A stretch of 64,000 bases of DNA from NCBI GenBank assembly GCA_018066125.1, contig JAGHSA010000050.1, positions 101,862 to 165,861 of the forward strand, read 5' to 3'. The notes under the pieces were generated by a model that searched no databases, was not told the DNA's origin, and saw only the letters and a list, made by a program, of their open reading frames with translations. Made by a program: the position numbers and the translations under genes. This DNA is from Candidatus Cryptobacteroides onthequi. Lineage in GTDB: Bacteria; Bacteroidota; Bacteroidia; Bacteroidales; UBA932. Positions within the stretch are counted from its first letter, which is position 1. The number at the start of each line of letters is the position of its first letter. Below, one piece after another: positions 35,837 through 63,964 of the stretch.

Positions 35837-37261
35837 CTATTCCCAAGAGTCAAGGTCAAGTTCCGGCATGGAACTGCGGTGGAATTCAGGGTTGCTCACA
35901 CCGGCCCTGCGCTGAGCGAGATAGTCATCCAGCAGTCGGTACGCATACTTGCCGAGCTGCACTATGGCGATGAGGTTGACAGCAGTCAGGAGCGCCATGC
36001 AAATATCACAGAGCGCCCAAAGAAGATTGAGGCCGGAAATGGCACCGAGCATCACGACGACGCCCGCAGACAGGAGCCTGAACACAAACAATACCGCTTT
36101 GCTGTCGGTCAGATAGCGGATATTCGCCTCACCGCTGTAATAGTTGCCGATGATGGAGCTGAAGGCGAACATGAATATCGCCACGGCGATGAATACCGCT
36201 CCGACAGGACCCACCTCCGACACCAGGGCTGCCTGAGTCAGCGCCACGCCATTGAGGCCTGAGCTCCAGTCCACACCGCTGAAAAGGATGATGAACGCAG
36301 TACAGCTGCAGACCACCAGGGTATCGGTAAATACCCCCAGTGCCTGGACAATGCCCTGCTTGACCGGATGGCTCACGCTCGCGGTGGCTGCGATATTCGG
36401 GGTCGAGCCTTCGCCCGCCTCATTGGAGAACAGTCCCCTCTTGATGCCGTAAGACATGGCGGCGCCCACACCTCCGCCGACCGCCTGATCAAAGCCGAAT
36501 GCGTTGTCGATGATAAGCCTGAGCACCTGCGGCAGCATGCCGATGTGGCAGCAGATGATGTATATCGCCAGAATGAGATAGCCTACGGCCATCAGCGGCA
36601 CAAAGATGCTGCTGAATCTGGCAATCCTCTGTATGCCGCCGAACACGATGGCCAGCGCCATTACGGTGAGCACGATTCCCATGACGGTCTTGTCGATGCC
36701 GAATGCGACATTCATGGCATCACAGATGGTATTTGACTGTATGGAATTGTATGAGAAGCCGAAGGTGATGGAGATTAGTACAGCGAAAAGAGCGGCCATC
36801 CAACGTGACTTGAGTCCCTTGACTATATAATATGCAGGACCACCGATGAAAGAGTCTTCCGATGGTTTTTTGAAGAGCTGTGCCAGAGTGGACTCCACAA
36901 ACGATGTGGCAGCCCCGAACAGCGCTATGAGCCACATCCAAAAGACTGAGCCTGGTCCTCCGACAGCGATTGCAGTCGCCACTCCGGCAAGATTCCCCGT
37001 ACCGACGCGGCTGGCTATGGACACTGCAAAGGCCTGGAATGAAGAGACATGCCTTCCGGACTTATCCCTCGTGGTCGCCGAATCGCCCAAAAGGCGGAAC
37101 GACTCCCGGATAAGACGGAACTGCACTCCCTTGGTACGGATGGTAAACCATATGGCGCAACCGAGAAGGACTGCCACCATGACATAAGACCATATCGTAT
37201 CACCGACATATGTGATTCCCCAGAGCAGGGACTCCTTTATCGTGGATTCAAGAACCATCAT
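35837..37261 (-). CDS. Alanine/glycine:cation symporter (AgcS family)
   Basis: 474 residues, about 11 membrane helices. The family segments GVQFRLIRESFRLL, VGTGNLAGVATAIAVGGPGSVFWMW (in parts) and MSYGIKRGLFSNEAGEGSTPNIAATA are unmistakable for sodium:alanine/glycine symporters. It imports small neutral amino acids with sodium. Given the sodium-pumping decarboxylase in the same window, sodium is the likely coupling ion. Its promoter lies within the left 47-base repeat. Confidence 0.93.
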   Translation of the reverse strand: MMVLESTIKESLLWGITYVGDTIWSYVMVAVLLGCAIWFTIRTKGVQFRLIRESFRLLGDSATTRDKSGRHVSSFQAFAVSIASRVGTGNLAGVATAIAVGGPGSVFWMWLIALFGAATSFVESTLAQLFKKPSEDSFIGGPAYYIVKGLKSRWMAALFAVLISITFGFSYNSIQSNTICDAMNVAFGIDKTVMGIVLTVMALAIVFGGIQRIARFSSIFVPLMAVGYLILAIYIICCHIGMLPQVLRLIIDNAFGFDQAVGGGVGAAMSYGIKRGLFSNEAGEGSTPNIAATASVSHPVKQGIVQALGVFTDTLVVCSCTAFIILFSGVDWSSGLNGVALTQAALVSEVGPVGAVFIAVAIFMFAFSSIIGNYYSGEANIRYLTDSKAVLFVFRLLSAGVVVMLGAISGLNLLWALCDICMALLTAVNLIAIVQLGKYAYRLLDDYLAQRRAGVSNPEFHRSSMPELDLDSWE

Positions 37262-37318
37262 CTGAGCAAAAACACACTGACTAACCTTACCACCCCCGCT
37301 TTTACCGTCCCTTCCCCA

Positions 37319-37351
37319 TAAAAATACGAAATATGGCAGTCAATTGCAAAA
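37319..37351 (-). promoter_or_regulatory. Promoter of the alanine/glycine symporter gene, inside the left repeat
   Basis: The minus strand shows TTTTG (37347-37351), a 20-base spacer and TATTTTTA (37319-37326). Nearly all of it is part of the 47-base repeat, so the other repeat copy carries a nearly identical box pair. Confidence 0.45.
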
Positions 37352-37367
37352 CATGGTATGAAAAAGC
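37321..37367. repeat. Left 47-base direct repeat
   Basis: Identical to 40167-40213 at 45 of 47 positions (differences at 37341 and 37354). It starts AAAATACGAAATATGGCAGT and ends GGTATGAAAAAGC. The two copies bracket an AT-rich three-gene cassette. Confidence 0.85.
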
Positions 37368-37400
37368 CATGACAGCCGGGCCCCCGTCATTATAAAAAAC

Positions 37401-37422
37401 GCCGGCCCGGACGGGTCGGCGG
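37401..37422 (-). terminator. Terminator of the cassette's barrel-protein gene (repeat copy A)
   Basis: A GC-rich stem (GCCGGCCCG ... CGGGTCGGC) followed on the minus strand by GTTTTTT. It lies about 23 bases past the stop of the 37445-37966 gene. The 22 bases are identical to 44229-44250. Confidence 0.7.
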
Positions 37423-37444
37423 CAATCAAGTCGTTATCATATTG

Positions 37445-37966
37445 TTAAAAACAGACAGAGAAGATTAACGCAGTCTTCATCCACTGATATTTGAAATACG
37501 TATTCCTTTGGCATTCCGAGTCGGCCATTACCCCAAGTCCCAGAGATAGATTATTATATTTGAGGCCATATTCTGGCATGAGCATTGCGCCGATCTGATT
37601 ATCTCCATGATTTCCGTATGACATGCCGAATTTGCACTTTACATATGAGTCAATTCGTCCATGGTCAATGTCGTAACCACATGAAAGATACAAATACTGC
37701 ACACCCGACCCATCTGTCTTATACATGGGAACATCTATCCCAAGCCCTGCGCCAATAAACAAATTGTTGTCAAATGTATAGCCATGTGTCGTGAACACTA
37801 CTGGCCTGTTTTCATATCCTCCTCCTGGGAAATGAAGGACTCCCATGGAGACATCTCCAGTGTAGCCTTTGCTCCTGTGTGATTCACAATCTGCATTCTG
37901 GCCGAAAACTGATGGGGCCATACAAAACAGAGTTAAAACCCATGTAATAAATTGTTTCATGCTCAT
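37445..37966 (-). CDS. Small secreted outer-membrane-type beta-barrel protein
   Basis: 173 residues. A signal peptide (FITWVLTLFCMAPSVFGQ) is followed by alternating beta strands rich in Gly and Tyr (LFIGAGLGIDVPMY, YLYLSCGYDIDHG, LSLGLGVMAD) and a terminal VCF. This looks like a small eight-strand barrel. I do not recognise the family. It overlaps the upstream lipoprotein gene by 4 bases (ATGA type), so the two are probably made together. Base composition is more AT-rich than the core. Confidence 0.6.
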   Translation of the reverse strand: MSMKQFITWVLTLFCMAPSVFGQNADCESHRSKGYTGDVSMGVLHFPGGGYENRPVVFTTHGYTFDNNLFIGAGLGIDVPMYKTDGSGVQYLYLSCGYDIDHGRIDSYVKCKFGMSYGNHGDNQIGAMLMPEYGLKYNNLSLGLGVMADSECQRNTYFKYQWMKTALIFSVCF

Positions 37967-39081
37967 TGCTGTATATGCATTTTCAAGTATGTTTTTCCAT
38001 CAGATGTTACGTATTCATGAGACGGACTCTGTGCCAAGAGAACATCTCTATAATAGAGCCATTGATTAATAATATCATCTTCGTCTTCATAGGTAACGCT
38101 TTGACTAACCGTAGTCACGTTTCCTTGACCATCGGAGATCTGGTTCCCAAATGTTATTGTCTGTTCTGTGCCACCATCTGTCTCTACCATAAGCATGTGA
38201 TTTGTGTACTGTTCAGGAATCCAATTGTCATTCAATGTCCTATTAATAGCGACCCATGTACCATCCCCTTTTGCGTATTTCCTAAGAATCGTAAAGAATA
38301 CTGCATTAGTACCTCCTAAGGAGCCGGTTGTGGGAGGTATTGTTATCGTTATTTTGACGTTATTTCCAGCACTAAAAATACCATCATATTGTTTCGTCAT
38401 TTTGACCTGGTCCAGAATCCAAGGGTGAAAGTCGCTGGATTTTGTGATTATCTGATTATGAGTCGAAGCATTCTCTCTTATAGTCTGTATATATTCATAT
38501 GGGATAACATTTTTATTGATGACCCATACCGGATTGGTTATAGCATAACTCTCATCAACCATAACTATCCTTGAATTAACATCATCGTTACCTGGCATAT
38601 ATTTTATCCCCCAATTCCAGTTCTGATCTTCATCTTCTGGTAAATATGTTATCGTTGGGAGAGAAACTCCGTCCCAGTTATCAGAGTATGGCCAATAAAT
38701 CTGAAGCGTAGGGTCATTGAAAATATTCGTGAAATTTTCAGATTTTGTTTCAGCTGAAACTGATTTAATTTTCGACAGAAGCATAGGACAATTGTAGCTG
38801 TTATTGCCTGCTTTCGTTGCAGAAAAAAGGTCCGCCAAGATAAGGCTTTCATCAAATCCCAAAGAAATAGACTTTTCAATCACACTCTTAACTTCCTTAC
38901 AGGTTGCGACATCAATGTCAGCCGCACATAGCAACTTGGCAAAAACAAGTTGCCTGCTTTCGCTTTTTTCGTTTGGGAATAATGTACTATTTGATGTTTG
39001 GATAGTCTCTGCTTGATAATCAGACATCTTACACGAGATAAGCATGCAGAAACTCAATAGAAAAAAAGCAATTTTTTTCAT
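37963..39081 (-). CDS. Lipoprotein of unknown function
   Basis: 372 residues. The lipoprotein signal ends in LISC (Cys17). The mature part begins with a helical region (about 40-110), then a beta-rich region around YWPYSDNWDG and PVWVINKNVIPYEY, and further strands to the end. I do not recognise the family and see no catalytic motif. It is cotranscribed with a small barrel protein, which suggests a surface-exposed pair. It is divergent from the AraC regulator, which could control it. AT-rich relative to the core. Confidence 0.6.
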   Translation of the reverse strand: MKKIAFFLLSFCMLISCKMSDYQAETIQTSNSTLFPNEKSESRQLVFAKLLCAADIDVATCKEVKSVIEKSISLGFDESLILADLFSATKAGNNSYNCPMLLSKIKSVSAETKSENFTNIFNDPTLQIYWPYSDNWDGVSLPTITYLPEDEDQNWNWGIKYMPGNDDVNSRIVMVDESYAITNPVWVINKNVIPYEYIQTIRENASTHNQIITKSSDFHPWILDQVKMTKQYDGIFSAGNNVKITITIPPTTGSLGGTNAVFFTILRKYAKGDGTWVAINRTLNDNWIPEQYTNHMLMVETDGGTEQTITFGNQISDGQGNVTTVSQSVTYEDEDDIINQWLYYRDVLLAQSPSHEYVTSDGKTYLKMHIQQ

Positions 39082-39153
39082 GGTTAGTTATTAATTAAAT
39101 TTGATTAAACCAGTATAGGTTATTACTTAAAAAATAGCGCTACAATCAAAGGT

Positions 39154-40122
39154 ATGCATTTTCAATTACATCGATTCTCGGGAAGTGCTCAACATTTCTC
39201 AAAATTTGCTTATCTTACGGCAGATGGAATGACATATGGAAGATTTCGTAACTGTAATGAACGATCGCTAATGAATAAAAGAATACTATCCATGCTCTGT
39301 AGTGACGAGCAACAGATATGTCTGAACGATGAATACGTGATAGTCGAAGATGCTGAGGTAAAGTCATTGGAGGGAAGGATTCTCAAAAGCGAGTCATATG
39401 TTGTCATCAATTGTTCAGAGGGGGTCCTAAACTTCGCCGTAGACATGCGCGAAATGAGTATCATGGCAGGGAGTGTCGTATATTTGATGCCGAGACAGTT
39501 GTATGAGATCATGCATGTTTCTGAAGACTTCAGGGCTACGTTACTATGTATGTCCGAGTCATTCTTACAATGGCTTGATTTGAAGCAAACTATGTTTTAT
39601 AGGGATCTTAGCGGCCTTCCAATTCGAGCTACATCATATGGTTCCTTCGAGAAATATATCGATATCTGCAAGGATATCATCCGCATAGATCAGAATCCTG
39701 AAAAAAAGGAGGTCATTTATTACCTGACAAAGGCATACCTTCTGGCTATGTCTCATTTCAGGATTCTCGAACCAGGCAATGCGAGGGAACGCAATGCTTC
39801 TTCCGAAATTATGGAAAGGTTCATGAATATGCTGCATCCTGATGACATATTTCACAGATCGGTTGGATATTATGCATGTGCTCTTTGCATATCGCCAAAA
39901 CATCTGTCATCTGTTTCAAGAAAGATAACGGGGTTTGGAGCAACATATTGGATTGACCGGACCGCGATCCTTAACGCTAAACGTCTTCTGACATCGACTT
40001 GTCTCCCGATTTCCGAAATATCAAGCCAACTTGAATTCTCAAATCAAAGTTCATTCGGGAGTTTCTTCAAGCAGCACACAGGGATGACTCCATCAGAATA
40101 CCGGAAGACTGCGAGTATCTAA
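39154..40122 (+). CDS. AraC family transcriptional regulator
   Basis: Up to 322 residues. The C-terminal 100 residues hold two helix-turn-helix units (YYACALCISPKHLSSVSRKI and LPISEISSQLEFSNQSSFGSFF in parts, ending GMTPSEYRK), the AraC signature. The N-terminal part looks like a cupin sensor domain. AAAGG six bases before the ATG at 39154 supports that start; the ATG at 39271 (MNKRILS) is a reasonable alternative. A TAAATTTG element at 39096-39103 could be its promoter. It is divergent from the lipoprotein gene of the same cassette and is its likely regulator. Confidence 0.8.
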   Translation: MHFQLHRFSGSAQHFSKFAYLTADGMTYGRFRNCNERSLMNKRILSMLCSDEQQICLNDEYVIVEDAEVKSLEGRILKSESYVVINCSEGVLNFAVDMREMSIMAGSVVYLMPRQLYEIMHVSEDFRATLLCMSESFLQWLDLKQTMFYRDLSGLPIRATSYGSFEKYIDICKDIIRIDQNPEKKEVIYYLTKAYLLAMSHFRILEPGNARERNASSEIMERFMNMLHPDDIFHRSVGYYACALCISPKHLSSVSRKITGFGATYWIDRTAILNAKRLLTSTCLPISEISSQLEFSNQSSFGSFFKQHTGMTPSEYRKTASI

Positions 40123-53897: not shown

Positions 53898-55079
53898 TTA
53901 TCTGTTGTAATAGTTGAGATAGGTCTCGATATCCTTGTCTCCTCTGCCGGAAACCGTAAGCACGACCACATCTTCCGGCCTGAATTTCATCTTCGGAAGC
54001 GCACCGAGGGCATGGGCGCTCTCAAGTGCCGGGATGATGCCCTCCAGACGGGTCAGCTCGTATGCCGCAGCCACGGCCTCATCGTCGTTGACCGGTATGA
54101 TCTGCGCGCGCCTGTGAGCCGCCATATTCGCATGCATGGGACCGATGCCCGGATAGTCAAGACCGGCACTGATGCTGTACGGCTCTTCGATCTGACCGTC
54201 TTCGCTCTGGATCACATAGCTCTTTGCTCCATGAAGGATGCCGACCTGGCCGAGAGCGATGGTCGCCGCTGTCTTGCCGCTGTCCACTCCCATTCCGCCG
54301 GCCTCGGCGAGAACGATTTTCACCCTCTCGTCATCGATATAATGGTACACGGTGCCGCCGGCATTGGAGCCGCCACCGACGCAGGCCATGAGATAATCCG
54401 GGTAGTCTCTGCCCTCTTTTTCCATGATCTGCTCCTTGATCTCCTTGGATATGACAGACTGAAGCCTGGCCACCATGTCCGGATAAGGGTGAGGTCCCAC
54501 AGTAGAGCCGATGATATAGAATGTATCAGAAGGATGGCAACACCAGTCACGGATGGCCTCATTCGTGGCATCCTTGAGAGTCTTGTTGCCGGATTCGACA
54601 GGTACGACCGTGGCACCGAGCATCTTCATCTTCTCCACATTGATGTGCTGACGCTTCACATCAGTCGCTCCCATATAGACGACGCACTGCATGTTCATCA
54701 GGGCGCACACTGTGGCTGTCGCCACTCCGTGCTGGCCGGCACCGGTCTCGGCGATGATGCGGGTCTTGCCCATGTGGCGTGCTATGAGGATCTGCCCCAC
54801 AGTGTTGTTGATCTTGTGCGCACCGGTATGGTTGAGGTCTTCACGCTTCAGATAGATCCTGGCGCCATACTTCTCGCTGAGCCTGTTTGCGTAATACAGA
54901 GGGCTCGGTCTGCCCACGTAATCCCTGAGGAGCTGATTGTACTCTTTCTGGAAACTCTCACTTTCAATGACTTTGAGATACTCCTTCTGGAGATTCTCCA
55001 CGCACTGATGCAGGATTTCAGGCACATACGCACCTCCGAACTCACCGTAATAACCGTCTTTGTCTACTAAATAACTCAT
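53898..55079 (-). CDS. trpB: Tryptophan synthase beta chain
   Basis: 393 residues. The PLP lysine lies in [14 protein letters not shown], and the phosphate-binding loop is [10 protein letters not shown]. All subclass-1 TrpB features are present ([12 protein letters not shown] at the start, [13 protein letters not shown]). It joins indole to serine. It is the first structural gene after the leader and attenuator. Confidence 0.97.
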
Positions 55080-55104
55080 ATTTCAAGTAATACTTTTTCT
55101 ATAT

Positions 55105-55143
55105 GAAAAGAGCCCTGTCGTAATCTACGGCAGAGCTCTTTTC
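55105..55143 (-). terminator. trpL: Attenuator terminator of the trp operon
   Basis: Read on the minus strand, GAAAAGAGC and GCTCTTTTC pair perfectly over 9 bases, with seven more pairs inside after one mismatch, and a 5-base loop. It lies between the leader peptide and trpB. The loop-side segment TTACGAC can also pair with GTCGTAA at the leader stop codon (55175-55181), an alternative that would break this hairpin. Confidence 0.75.
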
Positions 55144-55174
55144 ATGTATGTGTACACATACGGAGCTTGTCCCC

Positions 55175-55225
55175 TTACGACTGTCTGAGTTGTAACGGGC
55201 GCCACCACCAATATGCGTTCATCAT
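55175..55225 (-). CDS. trpL: trp operon leader peptide
   Basis: A 16-residue peptide, MMNAYWWWRPLQLRQS, with three Trp codons in a row (55202-55210 on the minus strand), ending in TAA at 55175. ATGs at 55231 and 55222 are also in frame, but 55231 would lie at the predicted transcript start. Ribosome stalling at the Trp codons would control the attenuator hairpin downstream. The ORF is too short for usual gene callers. Confidence 0.8.
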   Translation of the reverse strand: MMNAYWWWRPLQLRQS

Positions 55226-55237
55226 ATACATCAAGAG

Positions 55238-55268
55238 CAAAGTTAAATCATCATCCTGAATAATCAAA
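55238..55268 (-). promoter_or_regulatory. Promoter of the trp operon
   Basis: The minus strand shows TTTG (55265-55268), a 19-base spacer and TAACTTTG (55238-55245): an exact match to the Bacteroidota consensus. It lies directly after the stop of the small AraC-type gene. Confidence 0.75.
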
Positions 55269-55284
55269 TAATTTAACAACTTTT

Positions 55285-55653
55285 TTACTTTCCTGCCAGG
55301 ATGCCGTTTTCAAACATGCTGTGACGGAAGTCTGAAGGGGTCTTGCCTGTCTCCAGCTTGAATGCCTGGTAGAAAGTGCGGCGATTGTTGAATCCGCTCT
55401 GAGAGGACAAAGTCTCGAACGGCATGAAAGGATGCTCCTTAAGGATGCCGATCGCATGACGGATGCGGTATCCATTTATCAGAGCATTGAATGAAGGGGC
55501 TATCGTCTTGATGGCCCGCGAAGCATAGGTCCTGTTGGTGCCAAGAGAATAACACACATAATCAAGACGGAGGTCTGCATCAAGATAACACTTTGAGGAT
55601 TCTAAAAATTCTACGACTTTTGCTGCTATCAGTTGTTCTGTTTTCACCATCAC
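55285..55653 (-). CDS. Small AraC-type helix-turn-helix protein
   Basis: 122 residues consisting almost only of the AraC DNA-binding domain: LDYVCYSLGTNRTYASRAI is the first HTH, and FETLSSQSGFNNRRTFYQAF the second, ending KTPSDFRHSM. A sensor domain is absent. It lies just upstream of the trp promoter on the same strand and divergent from the fucosidase gene. It could regulate either, or act as a stand-alone factor; nothing in the sequence decides. Confidence 0.8.
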   Translation of the reverse strand: MMVKTEQLIAAKVVEFLESSKCYLDADLRLDYVCYSLGTNRTYASRAIKTIAPSFNALINGYRIRHAIGILKEHPFMPFETLSSQSGFNNRRTFYQAFKLETGKTPSDFRHSMFENGILAGK

Positions 55654-55689
55654 AAATAAGGGGGAATAATGGTTTTTCGTTTATTTTGC

Positions 55690-55697
55690 TATATTTG
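55690..55697 (+). promoter_or_regulatory. -7 element for the fucosidase gene
   Basis: TATATTTG, a full TAnnTTTG match, 43 bases before the start. The upstream box at the expected distance is poor, which could mean an activator is needed. Confidence 0.45.
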
Positions 55698-55740
55698 TAC
55701 AAAGACAAATCCGTGCTAATTTATTAATAATTATCAAATA

Positions 55741-57069
55741 ATGAAAAAATTTATTGCATCCATCCTCCTATCTCTTGCAATATCAGGAGCTTTGAGGGCT
55801 CAGGGATATGTCCCTACAGAAGAGAATCTTCAGAACAGAAAGGAATTCGCAGAATCCCGATTTGGCATATTTATTCACTGGGGCGTATATTCTATGCTCG
55901 GTGACGGTGAATGGGCGATGAACACCAAGCCTCTCACCTACGATGAGTACAAGCACCTCGCAGCAGGATTCTACCCGTCAAAGTTCAATGCCGAAGAATG
56001 GGCAAGCCTCTTCAAGGAGGCCGGTGCGAAATACATCACCATCACCTCAAGGCACCATGATGGATTCTCGATGTTCGACTCCAAGGTCACAGACTATGAC
56101 ATCATGGACGCATCCCCTTTCAAGAGAGATATCCTGAAGGAACTCTCTCAGGCTTGCGCCAAGGAGGGCATCAAGCTCAATTTCTACTACTCACACCTTG
56201 ATTGGGGACGCAACGACTACTTCCCTCTCGGCACCACCGGCAAGAACTCCGGACGCCCTGAGGGCGGCGACTGGAACAGCTACCTGAACTTCATGAACGC
56301 CCAGCTCACCGAGCTCCTGACCAACTACGGTCCTATCGGATGCATCTGGTTCGACGGAGTCTGGGACAAGAAGGGAAACAGCCGCGAGGAACTCGAGAAC
56401 ACCTGGAAGCTGGTCGAGCAGTACAAGCTCATCCACTCTATCCAGCCAGGCTGCATGGTAGGAAACAACCACCACCTCCCTGTATTCGACGGAGAAGACA
56501 TGCAGATGTTCGAGAAGGACCTCCCGGGCAAGAACACATCAGGATTCTCAGGAGACTCCCAGGTGTCCGACAGCCTTCCTCTCGAGACCTGCGAGACCAT
56601 GAACCACAACTGGGGATACAAGCCTACAGACCATGACTACAAGTCAGTCGAGACTCTTATCAGATATCTCGTACGCGCTGCAAGCAACAACGCAAACCTT
56701 CTCCTCAACATCGGCCCGCGTCCGGACGGAACAATTCCTGACGAGGCTGTAGAGAGACTCAGAGAGATGGGCAAGTGGCTCGACAAGAACGGCGAGACAG
56801 TATATGCCACCAAGGGCGGATGCGTCCCTGAGCAGGCATGGGGTGTCACCACACAGAAGGACAACACACTCTACGTGCATGTCTTCGAGCATTCAGACGC
56901 CATCCTTGTTCCAATCAAGGGCAACAAGCTCGTCAGCGCAGTGGCATTTGACAACGGAGAGAAGGTTCCTTTCACCCAGGTAAGCGAAGGTATCGTGCTT
57001 TCTCTTCCTGCAGCGGCCGAGGGCACAATCGACCAGATCATCACCCTCAGATTCAAGAACAACCTCTAA
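55741..57069 (+). CDS. Alpha-L-fucosidase (GH29)
   Basis: 442 residues. The signal peptide ends near GALRAQG (about residue 21). GH29 motifs include FGIFIHWGVYSMLG, ITSRHHDGFSMFDSK and CIWFDGVWD with the nucleophile Asp, followed by the MNHNWGYKP and LLLNIGPRPDGTIP segments. It removes alpha-linked fucose from host or plant glycans in the periplasm. A short C-terminal beta domain follows the barrel. It is a single gene with a terminator after it. Confidence 0.93.
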   Translation: MKKFIASILLSLAISGALRAQGYVPTEENLQNRKEFAESRFGIFIHWGVYSMLGDGEWAMNTKPLTYDEYKHLAAGFYPSKFNAEEWASLFKEAGAKYITITSRHHDGFSMFDSKVTDYDIMDASPFKRDILKELSQACAKEGIKLNFYYSHLDWGRNDYFPLGTTGKNSGRPEGGDWNSYLNFMNAQLTELLTNYGPIGCIWFDGVWDKKGNSREELENTWKLVEQYKLIHSIQPGCMVGNNHHLPVFDGEDMQMFEKDLPGKNTSGFSGDSQVSDSLPLETCETMNHNWGYKPTDHDYKSVETLIRYLVRAASNNANLLLNIGPRPDGTIPDEAVERLREMGKWLDKNGETVYATKGGCVPEQAWGVTTQKDNTLYVHVFEHSDAILVPIKGNKLVSAVAFDNGEKVPFTQVSEGIVLSLPAAAEGTIDQIITLRFKNNL

Positions 57070-61322: not shown

Positions 61323-61718
61323 GGGGATGTTTTGGTTTTGACAGCATCGATGTCGGATGGTAAGCACGCCGGGGGTCGTGGCCTTCCCCGTAAATCTCAG
61401 ACCTCAAAAAACTAGTTGGCAACAACAATTACGCACTCGCTGCCTAATCTACATGTAGTTTAGCTTAATCCGTGTCGCCAAGGCTGCGGCACCGACGAGT
61501 ATCCCGCCATTCTTCAGGCCGGTCATGAATGGCACCCGGGGTATCATCCAGACCGGATGCACGGCTCAGACGCCTCTAAGAGCCGCAAAGACACAGAGGA
61601 TAAGCTGCGGTCAAGGGCGTCTTCCCTCATGCCGCCGCCGACAACCAAAGGAAGACTAAACGTGTAGAAAGCCCTCTGGTGCGTTGTTTGGACGGCGGTT
61701 CGAGTCCGCCCATCTCCA
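61323..61718 (+). ncRNA. ssrA: Transfer-messenger RNA (tmRNA)
   Basis: About 396 bases. The tRNA-like ends GGGGATG and CATCTCC pair, and the T arm is GGCGGTTCGAGTCCGCC in outline with the GTTCGAGTC loop. The tag frame at 61418-61447 reads GNNNYALAA then stop, close to known Bacteroidota tags. Pseudoknot-like complementary segments follow. It rescues stalled ribosomes together with SmpB. Its 3' end is a probable integration site, since a diverged copy lies 367 bases downstream. Confidence 0.95.
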
Positions 61719-61721
61719 CTG

Positions 61722-62171: not shown

Positions 62172-62354
62172 CTATTTCGCTTGTTGTTGCTTAGGTTCAA
62201 TAATGGGACTCTTCTTTAATTGTTCATTAATGATCTTACTAGCCTCCTTTGTCATTTTCTCAACGGCCTTCCTATCTACATACTGGTTTCTTTCTACATA
62301 ACCTCCATACAAAGTAGTATCCATTGTTGTATAATTATTTATTGTTTGTTTCAT
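62172..62354 (-). CDS. 60-residue protein downstream of the Ntn hydrolase
   Basis: 60 residues from MKQTINNYTT (an ATG four codons upstream also exists). It has a YGGYVERNQYVDRKA middle part and a lysine/glutamate-rich helix (VEKMTKEASKIINEQLKK), ending in KQQQAK. No signal or membrane segment. Its start overlaps the end of the Ntn hydrolase gene by 20 bases, so the two are probably translated together. Function unknown; a partner or substrate-like small protein is a guess. Confidence 0.5.
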   Translation of the reverse strand: MKQTINNYTTMDTTLYGGYVERNQYVDRKAVEKMTKEASKIINEQLKKSPIIEPKQQQAK

Positions 62355-63618
62355 AGTAGTTATCAAAAAAGCATTTATTTAATTTTGGATCAAAATAGTG
62401 TTTCCTTTTCATCCAAATGAATCCATCACCTTTTGATACGACTGCTACATCTACAGGCCCTCCAACACTTTCCAGATTTGGAGTAATGTGCCTTTTTAGC
62501 GAGGTCATATATATCAAATTCTCTGCCAACTCTGCTAAATCTTCTTTTGCCATAGTAGATACTATGTTGATGAGTGGTTGGATGTTTTTGTTTTGTTTGA
62601 AAGACTGAATATCACGGTAGTGCTGATCTATCAAAGGCTTAACATCGAATTTTGAAATATTTTCAGCGATTAATTTATTATGCGGCCTAATAGCAGATGC
62701 AAGTTGAATAATCAATTGCTTCATAATAGCTTCGGTTCCTGATATCAACGTATTTTCAATCTCTGGATTAATACCTGTAATATACGTAAGCATTTCGTCT
62801 TTTTGGGCCATTGGACAAATATAGGCAGTATGACCGGCGTTCTCCACCCTATCATATTCAATCTCTCTATAGAATAGAAGACCATTGATACAATTGTAAA
62901 TGTGTATATGGTATAGAGACGGATAAATATCTTCTTTCCCGTATCCAAAGAATGAAATACCCGCGAACTCGCTCCTTTTCTCTCGAATATCCGTTGCTTT
63001 TGTGAAGAGATTGAAGAAAGTATCAACAACTAGATTATATAATGATTCATCACCTCCGGCATCACCAATCTCCTTTTTTATCTGTGAAAACGCTTGACTA
63101 TAGCATTGAATAAAAGCTGCTTTGTCGATTTTCGAAAGATCCGCCAAAACAGGCTTAGAAGCAATGTTACCATTGACATCAGTCAAGAATTTTTGTAATT
63201 CTGCAACATCTGCCTTATTGAGACCATGTTCTGGATCGCTATTGGGCATTTGTTTCAAAACATCAAAAGACCATAATCTGGATATCTCTCCGGAAGTAAA
63301 AAAATTAAGTTCTTCTACAGTAGTTTTCTTTTGCTTGAATTGTTCAAGATAAGCGAGAAATTTATCTGCATACTCTTTCACGGAGTCTAGTTCCTCGTCC
63401 CCGATTTCTCTTCGAAACATCTTTATGATGATTTCCCAAGGAACGCATGAGTTGAAAGATGCGTTGCTATATATGGCAATTCCAACAGGATGGCGTTTTG
63501 ACAAAGTGAAAATCTTGTTGGCCTTGTCATAAACCTTAACACCAGAGCCAATTGTAACCGCACTATCCGCGGCCACTGCTATAGCTTGTTTATTCAATAC
63601 TCCTACAATTGCCGTCAT
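62335..63618 (-). CDS. Proteasome/HslV-like Ntn hydrolase of unknown role
   Basis: 427 residues. Removing Met leaves Thr1, and counted from it the segment VAADSAVT places Asp at 17 and KIFTL places a Lys at 34, close to the Thr1-Asp17-Lys33 triad of proteasome beta subunits and HslV. Later family-like strands are GYGKEDIYPSLYHIHI (about 226-240) and SVGGPVDVAVVSKGDGF (about 384-400), near the C-terminus. Between residues 60 and 215 lies a largely helical insert, so the protein is more than twice the length of HslV. It has no signal peptide. An ATPase partner is not visible in the window. The peptidase call is inference from motifs; activity and target are unknown. Confidence 0.65.
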   Translation of the reverse strand: MTAIVGVLNKQAIAVAADSAVTIGSGVKVYDKANKIFTLSKRHPVGIAIYSNASFNSCVPWEIIIKMFRREIGDEELDSVKEYADKFLAYLEQFKQKKTTVEELNFFTSGEISRLWSFDVLKQMPNSDPEHGLNKADVAELQKFLTDVNGNIASKPVLADLSKIDKAAFIQCYSQAFSQIKKEIGDAGGDESLYNLVVDTFFNLFTKATDIREKRSEFAGISFFGYGKEDIYPSLYHIHIYNCINGLLFYREIEYDRVENAGHTAYICPMAQKDEMLTYITGINPEIENTLISGTEAIMKQLIIQLASAIRPHNKLIAENISKFDVKPLIDQHYRDIQSFKQNKNIQPLINIVSTMAKEDLAELAENLIYMTSLKRHITPNLESVGGPVDVAVVSKGDGFIWMKRKHYFDPKLNKCFFDNYYETNNK

Positions 63619-63666: not shown

Positions 63667-63939
63667 TTATTTCTCAACTGTCACTTTAATCTTATTTCCG
63701 CAGTGCGGGCATACCAGTGTTCCTGGCTCAACTGTAACAGTAGCCTTGTAATCAGAGAAGAGTTCAGGAATTGTTACGCCTAAGATATTTGCGATTTCCT
63801 GGAGCCTTGGGATAGAAATACTAGCTTCTCCGCGAATGATGGCACTGACATACTGTGGGGTCGTACCTAGTTTATCTGCCAACTCTTTTGCTTTCCAGCC
63901 TTTCTGTTCCAGTATTTCTTTTATTCTGAAGACTTCCAT
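63667..63939 (-). CDS. XRE-family regulator with a C-terminal CxxC knuckle
   Basis: 90 residues from MEVFRIKEI. An ATG six codons upstream coincides with the -7 promoter element and is rejected. The HTH is clear (WKAKELADKLGTTPQYVSAI, then PRLQEIANILGV). A short C-terminal tail has VCPHCGNKIKV, a single CxxC pair that could bind zinc in a dimer. It precedes the Ntn hydrolase gene by 48 bases on the same strand and is its likely regulator. Confidence 0.8.
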   Translation of the reverse strand: MEVFRIKEILEQKGWKAKELADKLGTTPQYVSAIIRGEASISIPRLQEIANILGVTIPELFSDYKATVTVEPGTLVCPHCGNKIKVTVEK

Positions 63940-63956
63940 TATAAATTGATTTTCCA

Positions 63957-63964
63957 CAAAAATA
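63957..63964 (-). promoter_or_regulatory. -7 element for the island regulator
   Basis: The minus strand reads TATTTTTG, matching TAnnTTTG, 17 bases before the chosen start. The upstream box is unclear near the window edge. Confidence 0.4.

What the first reader, a model, noticed from the sequence alone, without database searches (positions are those of the whole stretch)
62335..63618. A proteasome-like Ntn hydrolase in an AT-rich island
The protein starts Met-Thr and, numbered from Thr1, has Asp17 exactly where proteasome beta subunits and HslV have it, and a Lys at 34 near their Lys33. Later strands (GYGKEDIYPSLYHIHI and VGGPVDVAVVSKGDGF) also read like this fold. It is 427 residues long with a helical insert of about 150 residues, so it is neither HslV nor a normal beta subunit. 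It sits on a mobile island with a regulator and a small overlapping protein, a setting typical of defence or stress cassettes.
Basis: partly seen in the sequence, partly recalled or inferred. Interest (0 to 1): 0.85.

Follow-up and report, generated by a model that had tools for sequence, protein, structure and literature searches.

The report
Mobile proteasome-like enzyme with tiny partner
This is a distant bacterial cousin of the proteasome's cutting subunit, often carried by prophages, phage satellites and plasmids, and usually encoded together with a tiny fast-evolving partner protein whose role is still unknown.

Summary
Window 62335-63618, on the MINUS strand, encodes a 427-aa protein of phrog_5990 (unknown function). 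In 146 distinct relatives the residue after the start is Thr in 142 and Ser in 4; Asp17 and the Lys near 33 are invariant (146 of 146). The family profile's best PDB hits are archaeal proteasome beta subunits, weakly but in register. It is therefore a proteasome-like Ntn hydrolase, most likely the published family PMI-4 (PMC8665760), of unknown function; its authors found no informative gene context. I add two things. First, a partner: a coupled downstream ORF of 32-80 aa in 112 of 120 tested loci, against 62 of 436 control genes, under purifying selection; in the window it is 62172-62354 (-). Second, recurrent accessory-gene positions on prophages, phage satellites and plasmids: near repressors, near lysis genes, or behind a Gp49/HTH pair. 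Best guess: a Thr protease or peptide ligase controlled by its small partner, used in conflict between mobile elements. Function, binding and fold are not shown; the structure server was busy at all 35 requests.

The parts
62335..63618 (-). Proteasome-like Ntn hydrolase, 427 aa (phrog_5990; probably PMI-4)
   Evidence: Open frame; phrog_5990 E 1.4e-88, residues 1-421 on profile 1-427 of 427; Pfam PF00227 E 0.019, below cut-off
63613..63615 (-). Thr2 codon: the N-terminal nucleophile (Thr1) once the initiator Met is removed
   Evidence: Thr 142, Ser 4 of 146 distinct relatives
63565..63567 (-). Asp18 codon (Asp17 in proteasome numbering)
   Evidence: Asp in 146 of 146
63514..63516 (-). Lys35 codon (Lys34 from Thr1; equivalent of proteasome Lys33)
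   Evidence: Lys in 146 of 146; aligned with Lys33 of T. acidophilum proteasome beta
62977..63342 (-). Poorly conserved stretch 1, residues about 93-214 (proposed insert after H1/H2)
   Evidence: Mean majority-residue frequency 0.26, against 0.70 (residues 1-60) and 0.58 (61-92); Pro/Gly 5%; helix content not shown
62563..62763 (-). Poorly conserved stretch 2, residues about 286-352 (proposed insert between H3/H4)
   Evidence: Mean majority-residue frequency 0.26; Pro/Gly 5%
62422..62472 (-). C-terminal motif ESVGGPVDVAVVSKGDG, equivalent of proteasome beta SGGMIDVAVITRKDG
   Evidence: Profile A2 against PDB, profile positions 386-404 on T. acidophilum beta 167-185, 12.5 bits
62172..62354 (-). 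Small partner gene, 60 aa, overlapping the hydrolase gene by 20 nt (a second ATG at 62324 would give 50 aa)
   Evidence: coupled small ORF in 112 of 120 loci against 62 of 436 control genes; purifying selection in relatives
63667..63957 (-). XRE/HTH_3 regulator, 96 aa, CxxC zinc-ribbon-like tail, 48 nt upstream of the hydrolase gene
   Evidence: HTH_3 E 3.9e-17; a neighbour, not a general partner of the family
61323..61719 (+). tmRNA gene; possible boundary of the AT-rich island
   Evidence: ARAGORN; by eye the sequence just downstream differs in each of 11 congeneric loci read; no att repeat or integrase shown

Best explanation
A two-gene module. Gene 1 is a proteasome-like Ntn hydrolase without propeptide: removal of the initiator Met would free Thr1 (in a few relatives Ser1), which with Asp17 and the Lys near position 33 forms the catalytic centre. 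Gene 2, placed for translational coupling, makes a small protein that binds the enzyme (inferred) and sets when or what it cuts: inhibitor, lid or specificity subunit. Mobile elements carry the pair as an accessory gene ('moron'), expressed from the lysogen at least where it sits beside the repressor gene (inferred), and use it most likely against competing phages or other elements. Shown here: the family, the invariant catalytic residues, the partner gene and its selection, the recurrent positions on mobile elements. Inferred: catalysis, binding, regulation, defence.
For: Asp18 and Lys35 fixed in 146 of 146, nucleophile only Thr/Ser. Best PDB profile hits are archaeal proteasome beta, E 0.0082-0.01, both ends in register; hhalign against seven archaeal beta sequences E 1.4e-4 (inserts cut out) against 0.049 for alpha and 0.07-0.52 for eight column-shuffled controls. 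PF00227 in 20 of 101 members at E 0.1, best 2.4e-4. Partner ORF 112 of 120 against 62 of 436 control genes and 16% of shuffles; dN/dS 0.07-0.31 in the pairs with usable dS, e.g. 0.138/0.974, 0.179/1.315, 0.152/0.564. Position: among 131 neighbours at 38 viral loci the most frequent families shown are repressors (phrog_4 in 12), endolysins, holins and Q; in two E. coli copies directly after an HTH gene before recE; in six of seven Streptococcus satellite records the match ends within 221 bases of the record end, and an HTH gene precedes it in those opened. Defence families near chromosomal copies: 90 PADLOC models matched among 135 neighbours against 2 among 50 control proteins. Patchy: 4 of 101 congeneric genomes and 5 of 295 of the class, the window's own included in both; 22 of 5426 E. 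coli genomes by one DNA query.
Against: No structure could be predicted, so the Ntn sandwich is not shown. Profile similarity is carried by the first 32 residues; the middle and C-terminal blocks alone score E 0.13 and 0.01, changing the order of the blocks does not lower the score, and a reversed alignment reached 0.019. In the PDB search chance hits of the helical stretches (Cullin-3, a designed protein) follow closely at E 0.015-0.05. The small proteins of different clades could not all be linked. The family matches no PADLOC system. Flanking genes are mostly unrelated from locus to locus. In four Flavobacteriaceae it lies beside an ALAD (hemB) gene (4 of 135 neighbours), a shared chromosomal place that suggests a resident role. 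The tree follows phyla in the main (35 Bacteroidota rows need 4 changes against 19.9 by chance). No control was run for the viral neighbourhoods. No effect on any phage, and no binding of the partner, is shown.
Confidence: 0.4

Rival explanations
1. The small protein is the enzyme's substrate, not its regulator: the enzyme cuts it, or like connectase transfers part of it onto a target protein, so that the pair is a minimal tagging or maturation system.
For: The pairing is near-universal in the loci tested (112 of 120); by my reading the small protein has a short element (FFP, FFxLP or FNP) in several clades but is otherwise free to vary; a monomeric ligase exists in the same superfamily (connectase, PMC8665760).
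Against: The short element is not seen in the Bacteroidota versions, including the window's; the N-terminal block shows no long insert such as connectase has between S3 and S4, though without a structure S3/S4 is not located; I noticed no shared cleavage site.
Confidence: 0.2
2. Toxin-antitoxin module for maintenance of the element: a harmful protease held by a small antitoxin.
For: Two coupled genes, small fast-evolving second gene, mobile elements; in satellite Javan421 the pair follows a Gp49-like and an HTH gene; the window copy follows an HTH gene.
Against: Toxicity untested; the Gp49/HTH pair would be a unit of its own, and HTH_3 is found in only 2 of 135 chromosomal neighbours; shared chromosomal place in Flavobacteriaceae.
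Confidence: 0.2
3. A housekeeping or quality-control protease without a role in conflict, picked up by chance by phages.
For: Present in chromosomes of Bacteria and Archaea including ANME and Methanosarcinales; shared ALAD neighbourhood in Flavobacteriaceae.
Against: Rare and patchy; recurrent accessory positions in prophages and satellites.
Confidence: 0.15

Closest known systems
PMI-4 (Proteasome homolog with Multiple Insertions 4; Fuchs, Alva and Lupas 2021, PMC8665760, five of six text parts read)
   Same: Proteasome-like catalytic residues; variable stretches where PMI-4 has inserts after H1/H2 and between H3/H4; many bacterial phyla, Euryarchaeota and phages
   Different: Identity with the PMI-4 reference sequence could not be tested (not held). 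The 2021 paper reports no informative gene context; the coupled small gene and the positions on mobile elements are additions here
PHROG 5990
   Same: Full-length match, E 1.4e-88
   Different: Only a family label; function unknown
Archaeal 20S proteasome beta subunit (e.g. 3c91_H)
   Same: Thr1, Lys33 and the SGGMIDVAVITRKDG strand align; at position 17 T. acidophilum has Glu where this family has Asp
   Different: About twice as long (427 against 203 aa in that chain); start directly before Thr1, so no propeptide
HslV
   Same: Asp17 and Lys33-like residues, no or short propeptide (HslV features recalled)
   Different: 427 aa against about 175 (recalled); two long variable stretches
Connectase
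   Same: Same superfamily; a precedent for a non-degrading monomer (PMC8665760)
   Different: No long insert in the N-terminal block here; connectase occurs in some methanogenic archaea only (PMC8665760)
phrog_1040, 'peptidase HslV family' of phages
   Same: Weak hit to residues 1-43, E 0.016
   Different: A different, shorter family (profile length 277)

Membership tests
Proteasome-like (Ntn hydrolase) family | Thr/Ser as N-terminal nucleophile | tested here: met
   Thr 142, Ser 4 of 146 distinct relatives; the codon before it is ATG 133, TTG 8, GTG 4, TTA 1
Proteasome-like (Ntn hydrolase) family | Asp17 and Lys33 equivalents | tested here: met
   Asp18 and Lys35 in 146 of 146
Proteasome-like (Ntn hydrolase) family | Gly47 (oxyanion hole) | tested here: inconclusive
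   Position 51, aligned with it by hhalign, is Gly in 75, Asn in 54, Ser in 10 of 146; the alignment there is uncertain
Proteasome-like (Ntn hydrolase) family | Significant profile similarity | tested here: inconclusive
   PDB profile search E 0.0082; hhalign 1.4e-4, N-terminus only, reversed control 0.019; PF00227 below cut-off for the window protein
Proteasome-like (Ntn hydrolase) family | Alpha-beta-beta-alpha sandwich fold | not tested
   Structure prediction always answered 'busy' (35 requests)
PMI-4 | Inserts after H1/H2 and between H3/H4 | tested here: inconclusive
   Two poorly conserved stretches at the expected places, judged from the alignment, not from a structure; PMI-3 has the same two sites (PMC8665760)
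PMI-4 | Taxonomic spread with phages | tested here: met
   Bacteroidota, Bacillota, Pseudomonadota, Cyanobacteriota, archaea and phages; Actinobacteria and PVC not seen in the loci kept
PMI-4 | Sequence match to the published PMI-4 set | not testable with these tools
   Reference HDY66466.1 and the Mendeley alignments are not held
Connectase | Two-helix insert between S3 and S4 | tested here: inconclusive
   N-terminal block (residues 1-92) has only short gaps in 16 members, but S3/S4 was not located by a structure
HslV | Compact subunit without inserts | tested here: not met
   427 aa; full-length match to a 427-position family
HslV | HslU partner | not tested
   No targeted search for HslU or other unfoldases was made
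Known anti-phage systems (PADLOC 2023) | Match to a listed model | tested here: not met
   0 families for the enzyme and for the small protein
Type II toxin-antitoxin | Two coupled genes, one small | tested here: met
   112 of 120 loci
Type II toxin-antitoxin | One protein toxic, the other neutralising | not testable with these tools
   Needs expression tests

The most novel reading that the evidence does not exclude
A mobile, minimal proteasome-like protein-modification system: a monomeric or small-ring threonine enzyme that cuts or conjugates its own co-encoded small protein, or uses it as an adaptor, to inactivate proteins of competing phages. It would be a two-gene counterpart of tagged proteolysis, used in conflict between mobile elements.
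Probability: 0.12. Interest if true: 0.85.

Novelty: new variant of a known kind. Interest (0 to 1): 0.55.

Why it matters
Fuchs et al. 2021 listed 22 new proteasome-like families and found no gene context that pointed to a function; PMI-4 is the largest of the 22 by their count (501 sequences at 90%). A partner gene found at nearly every locus tested gives a direct handle on it: co-express the two proteins, look for a complex, look for cleavage. The prophage and satellite positions suggest a concrete assay (phage challenge of lysogens), so a long-open question becomes testable.

Tried and rejected
Rejected: HslV or an ordinary beta subunit (length, variable stretches). Rejected: the HTH gene as a conserved partner; HTH_3 is in 2 of 135 chromosomal neighbours and in 9 of 131 viral neighbours, where many repressor families match. 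Rejected as a general rule: the ubiquitin-like cassette, seen in 4 of the 9 plasmid records opened out of 10 hits, all rhizobial; one of the nine has no annotation, and in the Mesorhizobium record only ThiF and multiubiquitin are annotated. Not reached: a structure, so no fold search was run. Literature: ten searches, seen as listings, gave no paper on the function of this family or on a proteasome-like anti-phage system; only open-licence PMC papers are held. Of PMC8665760 I read parts 1-5 of 6. Of PMC13022661 I saw only 12 passages, all in its reference list; the 'PMI' hits shown there were database numbers ('pmid').

Limits of my counts. Selection: relatives were found through C-terminal patterns and ranked by similarity to the window protein, 80 kept per collection. 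Of 184 loci with a match, 9 were dropped as short or interrupted (L022, L023, L025, L036, L041, L047, L051, L071, L102), leaving 175 loci and 146 distinct proteins. One of these (L032) has TTA where the start should be. A2 holds only ATG-started members of 396-469 aa under 75% identity. In one search, 120 of 136 loci passed the length conditions; the set is not fully dereplicated. Of its eight misses, five have a GTG-started small ORF near the stop and one an earlier ATG; L019 and L007 show nothing convincing; 60 of 61 pairs printed, many sharing loci; ten pairs involve L169 or L173, where an 81-aa start was chosen; several close pairs have no synonymous change in the small ORF and cannot be judged; seeds from Bacilli and from the second enterobacterial group found one and no further member, so one origin of all the small proteins is not shown. 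The A5 profile contains sequences from several of the genomes then searched. The PADLOC comparison counts models, not neighbours, with the top 25 shown; its control is 50 proteins of one genome. The E. coli count comes from a single DNA query, and 13 of the 22 matches cover under 80% of it.

Full report
1. What is there. The gene lies on the minus strand, 62335-63618, 427 aa. Downstream and overlapping it by 20 nt is a 60-aa ORF, 62172-62354 (-); upstream, 48 nt away, an HTH_3 protein, 63667-63957 (-). GC falls to 0.356-0.377 here. A tmRNA gene ends at 61719. In 11 congeneric loci the sequence after the tmRNA end differs, by eye, from this one and from each other, as expected of an insertion hot spot, but I found no att repeat and no integrase. 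The contig ends where the window ends, so the other border cannot be seen.

2. Family. phrog_5990 matches over its full length (E 1.4e-88). Pfam PF00227 gives E 0.019, below its cut-off; PADLOC gives nothing; a single-sequence PDB search gives nothing. tblastn finds relatives in 13 of 50,697 phage records and 10 of 72,556 plasmid records. Hosts include Bacteroidota, Bacillota, Pseudomonadota, Cyanobacteriota and several archaea.

3. Catalytic residues. Of 184 loci with a match, 175 hold a protein of at least 380 aa, 146 of them distinct; nine short or interrupted copies were left out. The residue after the start is Thr in 142 and Ser in 4, the exchange an Ntn nucleophile allows; Asp18, Ser19 and Lys35 do not vary; the position aligned with Gly47 is Gly in 75 and Asn in 54. 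The codon before it is ATG in 133, TTG in 8, GTG in 4 and TTA in 1, so there is no propeptide; Met removal before Thr is the usual rule (recalled). The relatives were found through C-terminal patterns, so the N-terminal conservation is not a product of the search itself. In A2 (101 members) the picture is the same. Two E. coli annotations opened (WP_225893418.1, WP_113844875.1) add an N-terminal extension that would hide the nucleophile.

4. Link to proteasomes. The A2 profile's best PDB hits are the T. acidophilum proteasome beta subunit (E 0.0082 to 0.01), with Thr on Thr1, Asp on Glu17, Lys on Lys33 and VGGPxDVAVISKGDG on SGGMIDVAVITRKDG; the two segments score only 4.1 and 12.5 bits, and chance hits to the helical stretches (Cullin-3 and others) follow from E 0.015. 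PF00227 reaches E 0.1 or better in 20 of 101 members. hhalign against seven archaeal beta sequences gives E 1.4e-4 with the inserts cut out, 0.049 for alpha sequences, 0.07-0.52 for eight column-shuffled controls; a reversed alignment gave 0.019. The score comes from the first 32 residues: reordering the blocks leaves it unchanged, the C-terminal block alone gives 0.01 and the middle 0.13. A search of the own genome (85% complete) for PF00227 returns only this gene (E 0.0144), while the same search rings in 11 of 14 control genomes.

5. Name. Fuchs, Alva and Lupas 2021 (PMC8665760; parts 1-5 of 6) describe 22 new proteasome-like families. PMI-4 has inserts after H1/H2 and between H3/H4, 501 sequences at 90%, and occurs in Proteobacteria, Firmicutes, Actinobacteria, Bacteroidetes, PVC, Cyanobacteria, other bacteria, Euryarchaeota and phages. 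Our family has poorly conserved stretches at residues about 93-214 and 286-352 and a like distribution. I therefore take it to be PMI-4; a direct sequence match could not be tested. The paper states that no genomic contexts suggestive of a specific function were found.

6. The partner. Of 136 loci, 120 have an intact gene and at least 350 bases downstream; 112 of these have an ATG-started ORF of 32-80 aa beginning within -30 to +60 of the stop. The same test is met by 62 of 436 other long ORFs in these loci and by 16% of shuffled downstream sequences. Of the eight misses, five have a GTG-started and one an earlier ATG-started small ORF. The ORF is selected as protein: where both values are usable dN/dS is 0.07-0.31, e.g. 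L029/L033 0.138/0.974, L073/L081 0.179/1.315, L049/L054 0.152/0.564; close pairs such as L134/L139 or L057/L120 have too few changes to judge (60 of 61 pairs printed). It evolves faster than the enzyme in most pairs. The Bacteroidota HMM (11 seeds) finds 27 of the other 119 small proteins at E 0.01, against 11 of 2600 shuffled sequences; those 27 are mostly Bacteroidota. The archaeal/deltaproteobacterial seed finds 16, the Bacilli seed 1, the two enterobacterial seeds 3 and 0, so a single origin is not shown. By my reading the common elements are a helix-like stretch and, outside Bacteroidota, FFP, FFxLP or FNP. In 101 congeneric genomes the small-protein profile gives clear hits only in two genomes that also have the close enzyme (G000, G066); three weak hits lie inside long frames; the two genomes with divergent enzymes (G016, G090) are missed. 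In ten other genomes, several of which gave sequences to the profile, each had one clear hit, and three a second weak one inside a long frame; in the two I checked (L040, L043) the clear hit lies next to the enzyme.

7. Where it sits. The closest relative found (G066, 50% identical) is in a tailed prophage, among terminase, portal, HNH, RusA-like and recombinase-like genes by my reading. Nine Streptococcus phage records have it, seven of them satellites; in six of the seven the match ends within 221 bases of the record end. In the three satellites opened an HTH gene and a 121-aa gene precede it; in Javan421 these are HTH_3 and Gp49, a pair that resembles HigBA (recalled). E. coli: 22 of 5426 genomes by one DNA query, 9 with at least 80% coverage. 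Of three contexts read, two show it directly after an HTH gene beside recE, the third between antiterminator Q and a methylase near the lysis genes. Around 38 of the 80 viral loci, 131 of 154 neighbours were scanned: among the 25 of 194 families shown, repressors (phrog_4 in 12), endolysins, holins and Q are the most frequent; no control was run for this. Such places are known for genes expressed in lysogens (recalled; lambda rexAB lies beside cI). Around the 80 chromosomal loci, 135 of 140 nearest neighbours were scanned (five were fragments of the gene itself): 127 Pfam families, the most frequent ALAD in 4; 90 PADLOC models, among the 25 shown type I restriction, Septu PtuA and PtuB, SoFic and several candidate systems, against 2 models among 50 proteins of the window's own first 58 kb. 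On rhizobial plasmids the gene lies near a Multi_ubiq/Prok-E2_E, ThiF, DUF6527 and ClpP-like cassette (4 of 9 records opened), which I take as island neighbourhood.

8. Spread. 4 of 101 congeneric genomes and 5 of 295 of the class, the own genome counted in both; one of the five is broken by stops. The tree of A2 follows phyla in the main: 35 Bacteroidota rows need 4 changes, 19.9 by chance. So in this sample transfer between phyla looks uncommon; the patchiness suggests gain and loss within them.

9. Verdict. The enzyme identification is about as sure as sequence allows. The two-gene module is new as far as my ten literature searches go. The function is a guess: a Thr enzyme governed by its partner and used between mobile elements, 0.4; substrate or ligation, 0.2; toxin-antitoxin, 0.2; housekeeping, 0.15.

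Noticed in passing
L011:8624-10502; also L012, L013: In Streptococcus satellite Javan421 the enzyme gene directly follows a Gp49-like gene and an HTH gene; the other two satellites opened have genes of the same kind and size there. Whether the protease acts on that pair is untested.
   Followed up: partly
L019:2733-7437, L020:6001-12484, L021, L022: On rhizobial plasmids the gene lies near a multiubiquitin/E2, ThiF E1, DUF6527 and ClpP-like cassette (in L019 only ThiF and multiubiquitin are annotated).
   Followed up: partly
L194:8787-10190, L195:6790-8190: RefSeq start of these E. coli copies is placed upstream of the Met-Thr start, which would hide the nucleophile; the 34-aa downstream ORF is not annotated.
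   Followed up: partly
L022, L023, L036, L041, L047, L051, L071, L102; G122:C16:138177-138671: Copies interrupted in the assembly or by stops; broken genes or assembly errors, left as they are.
   Followed up: no
window 37001-40000 and 55001-56000: Further AT-rich stretches (GC 0.385-0.459 and 0.426).
   Followed up: no
window 1-58000: PADLOC models mad3 and HEC-02A each match one of 50 window proteins at E below 1e-10; which ones was not resolved.
   Followed up: no
L038, L040, L043, L044: In four Flavobacteriaceae the module shares an upstream ALAD (hemB) gene, and some share downstream genes too: a common chromosomal place.
   Followed up: partly
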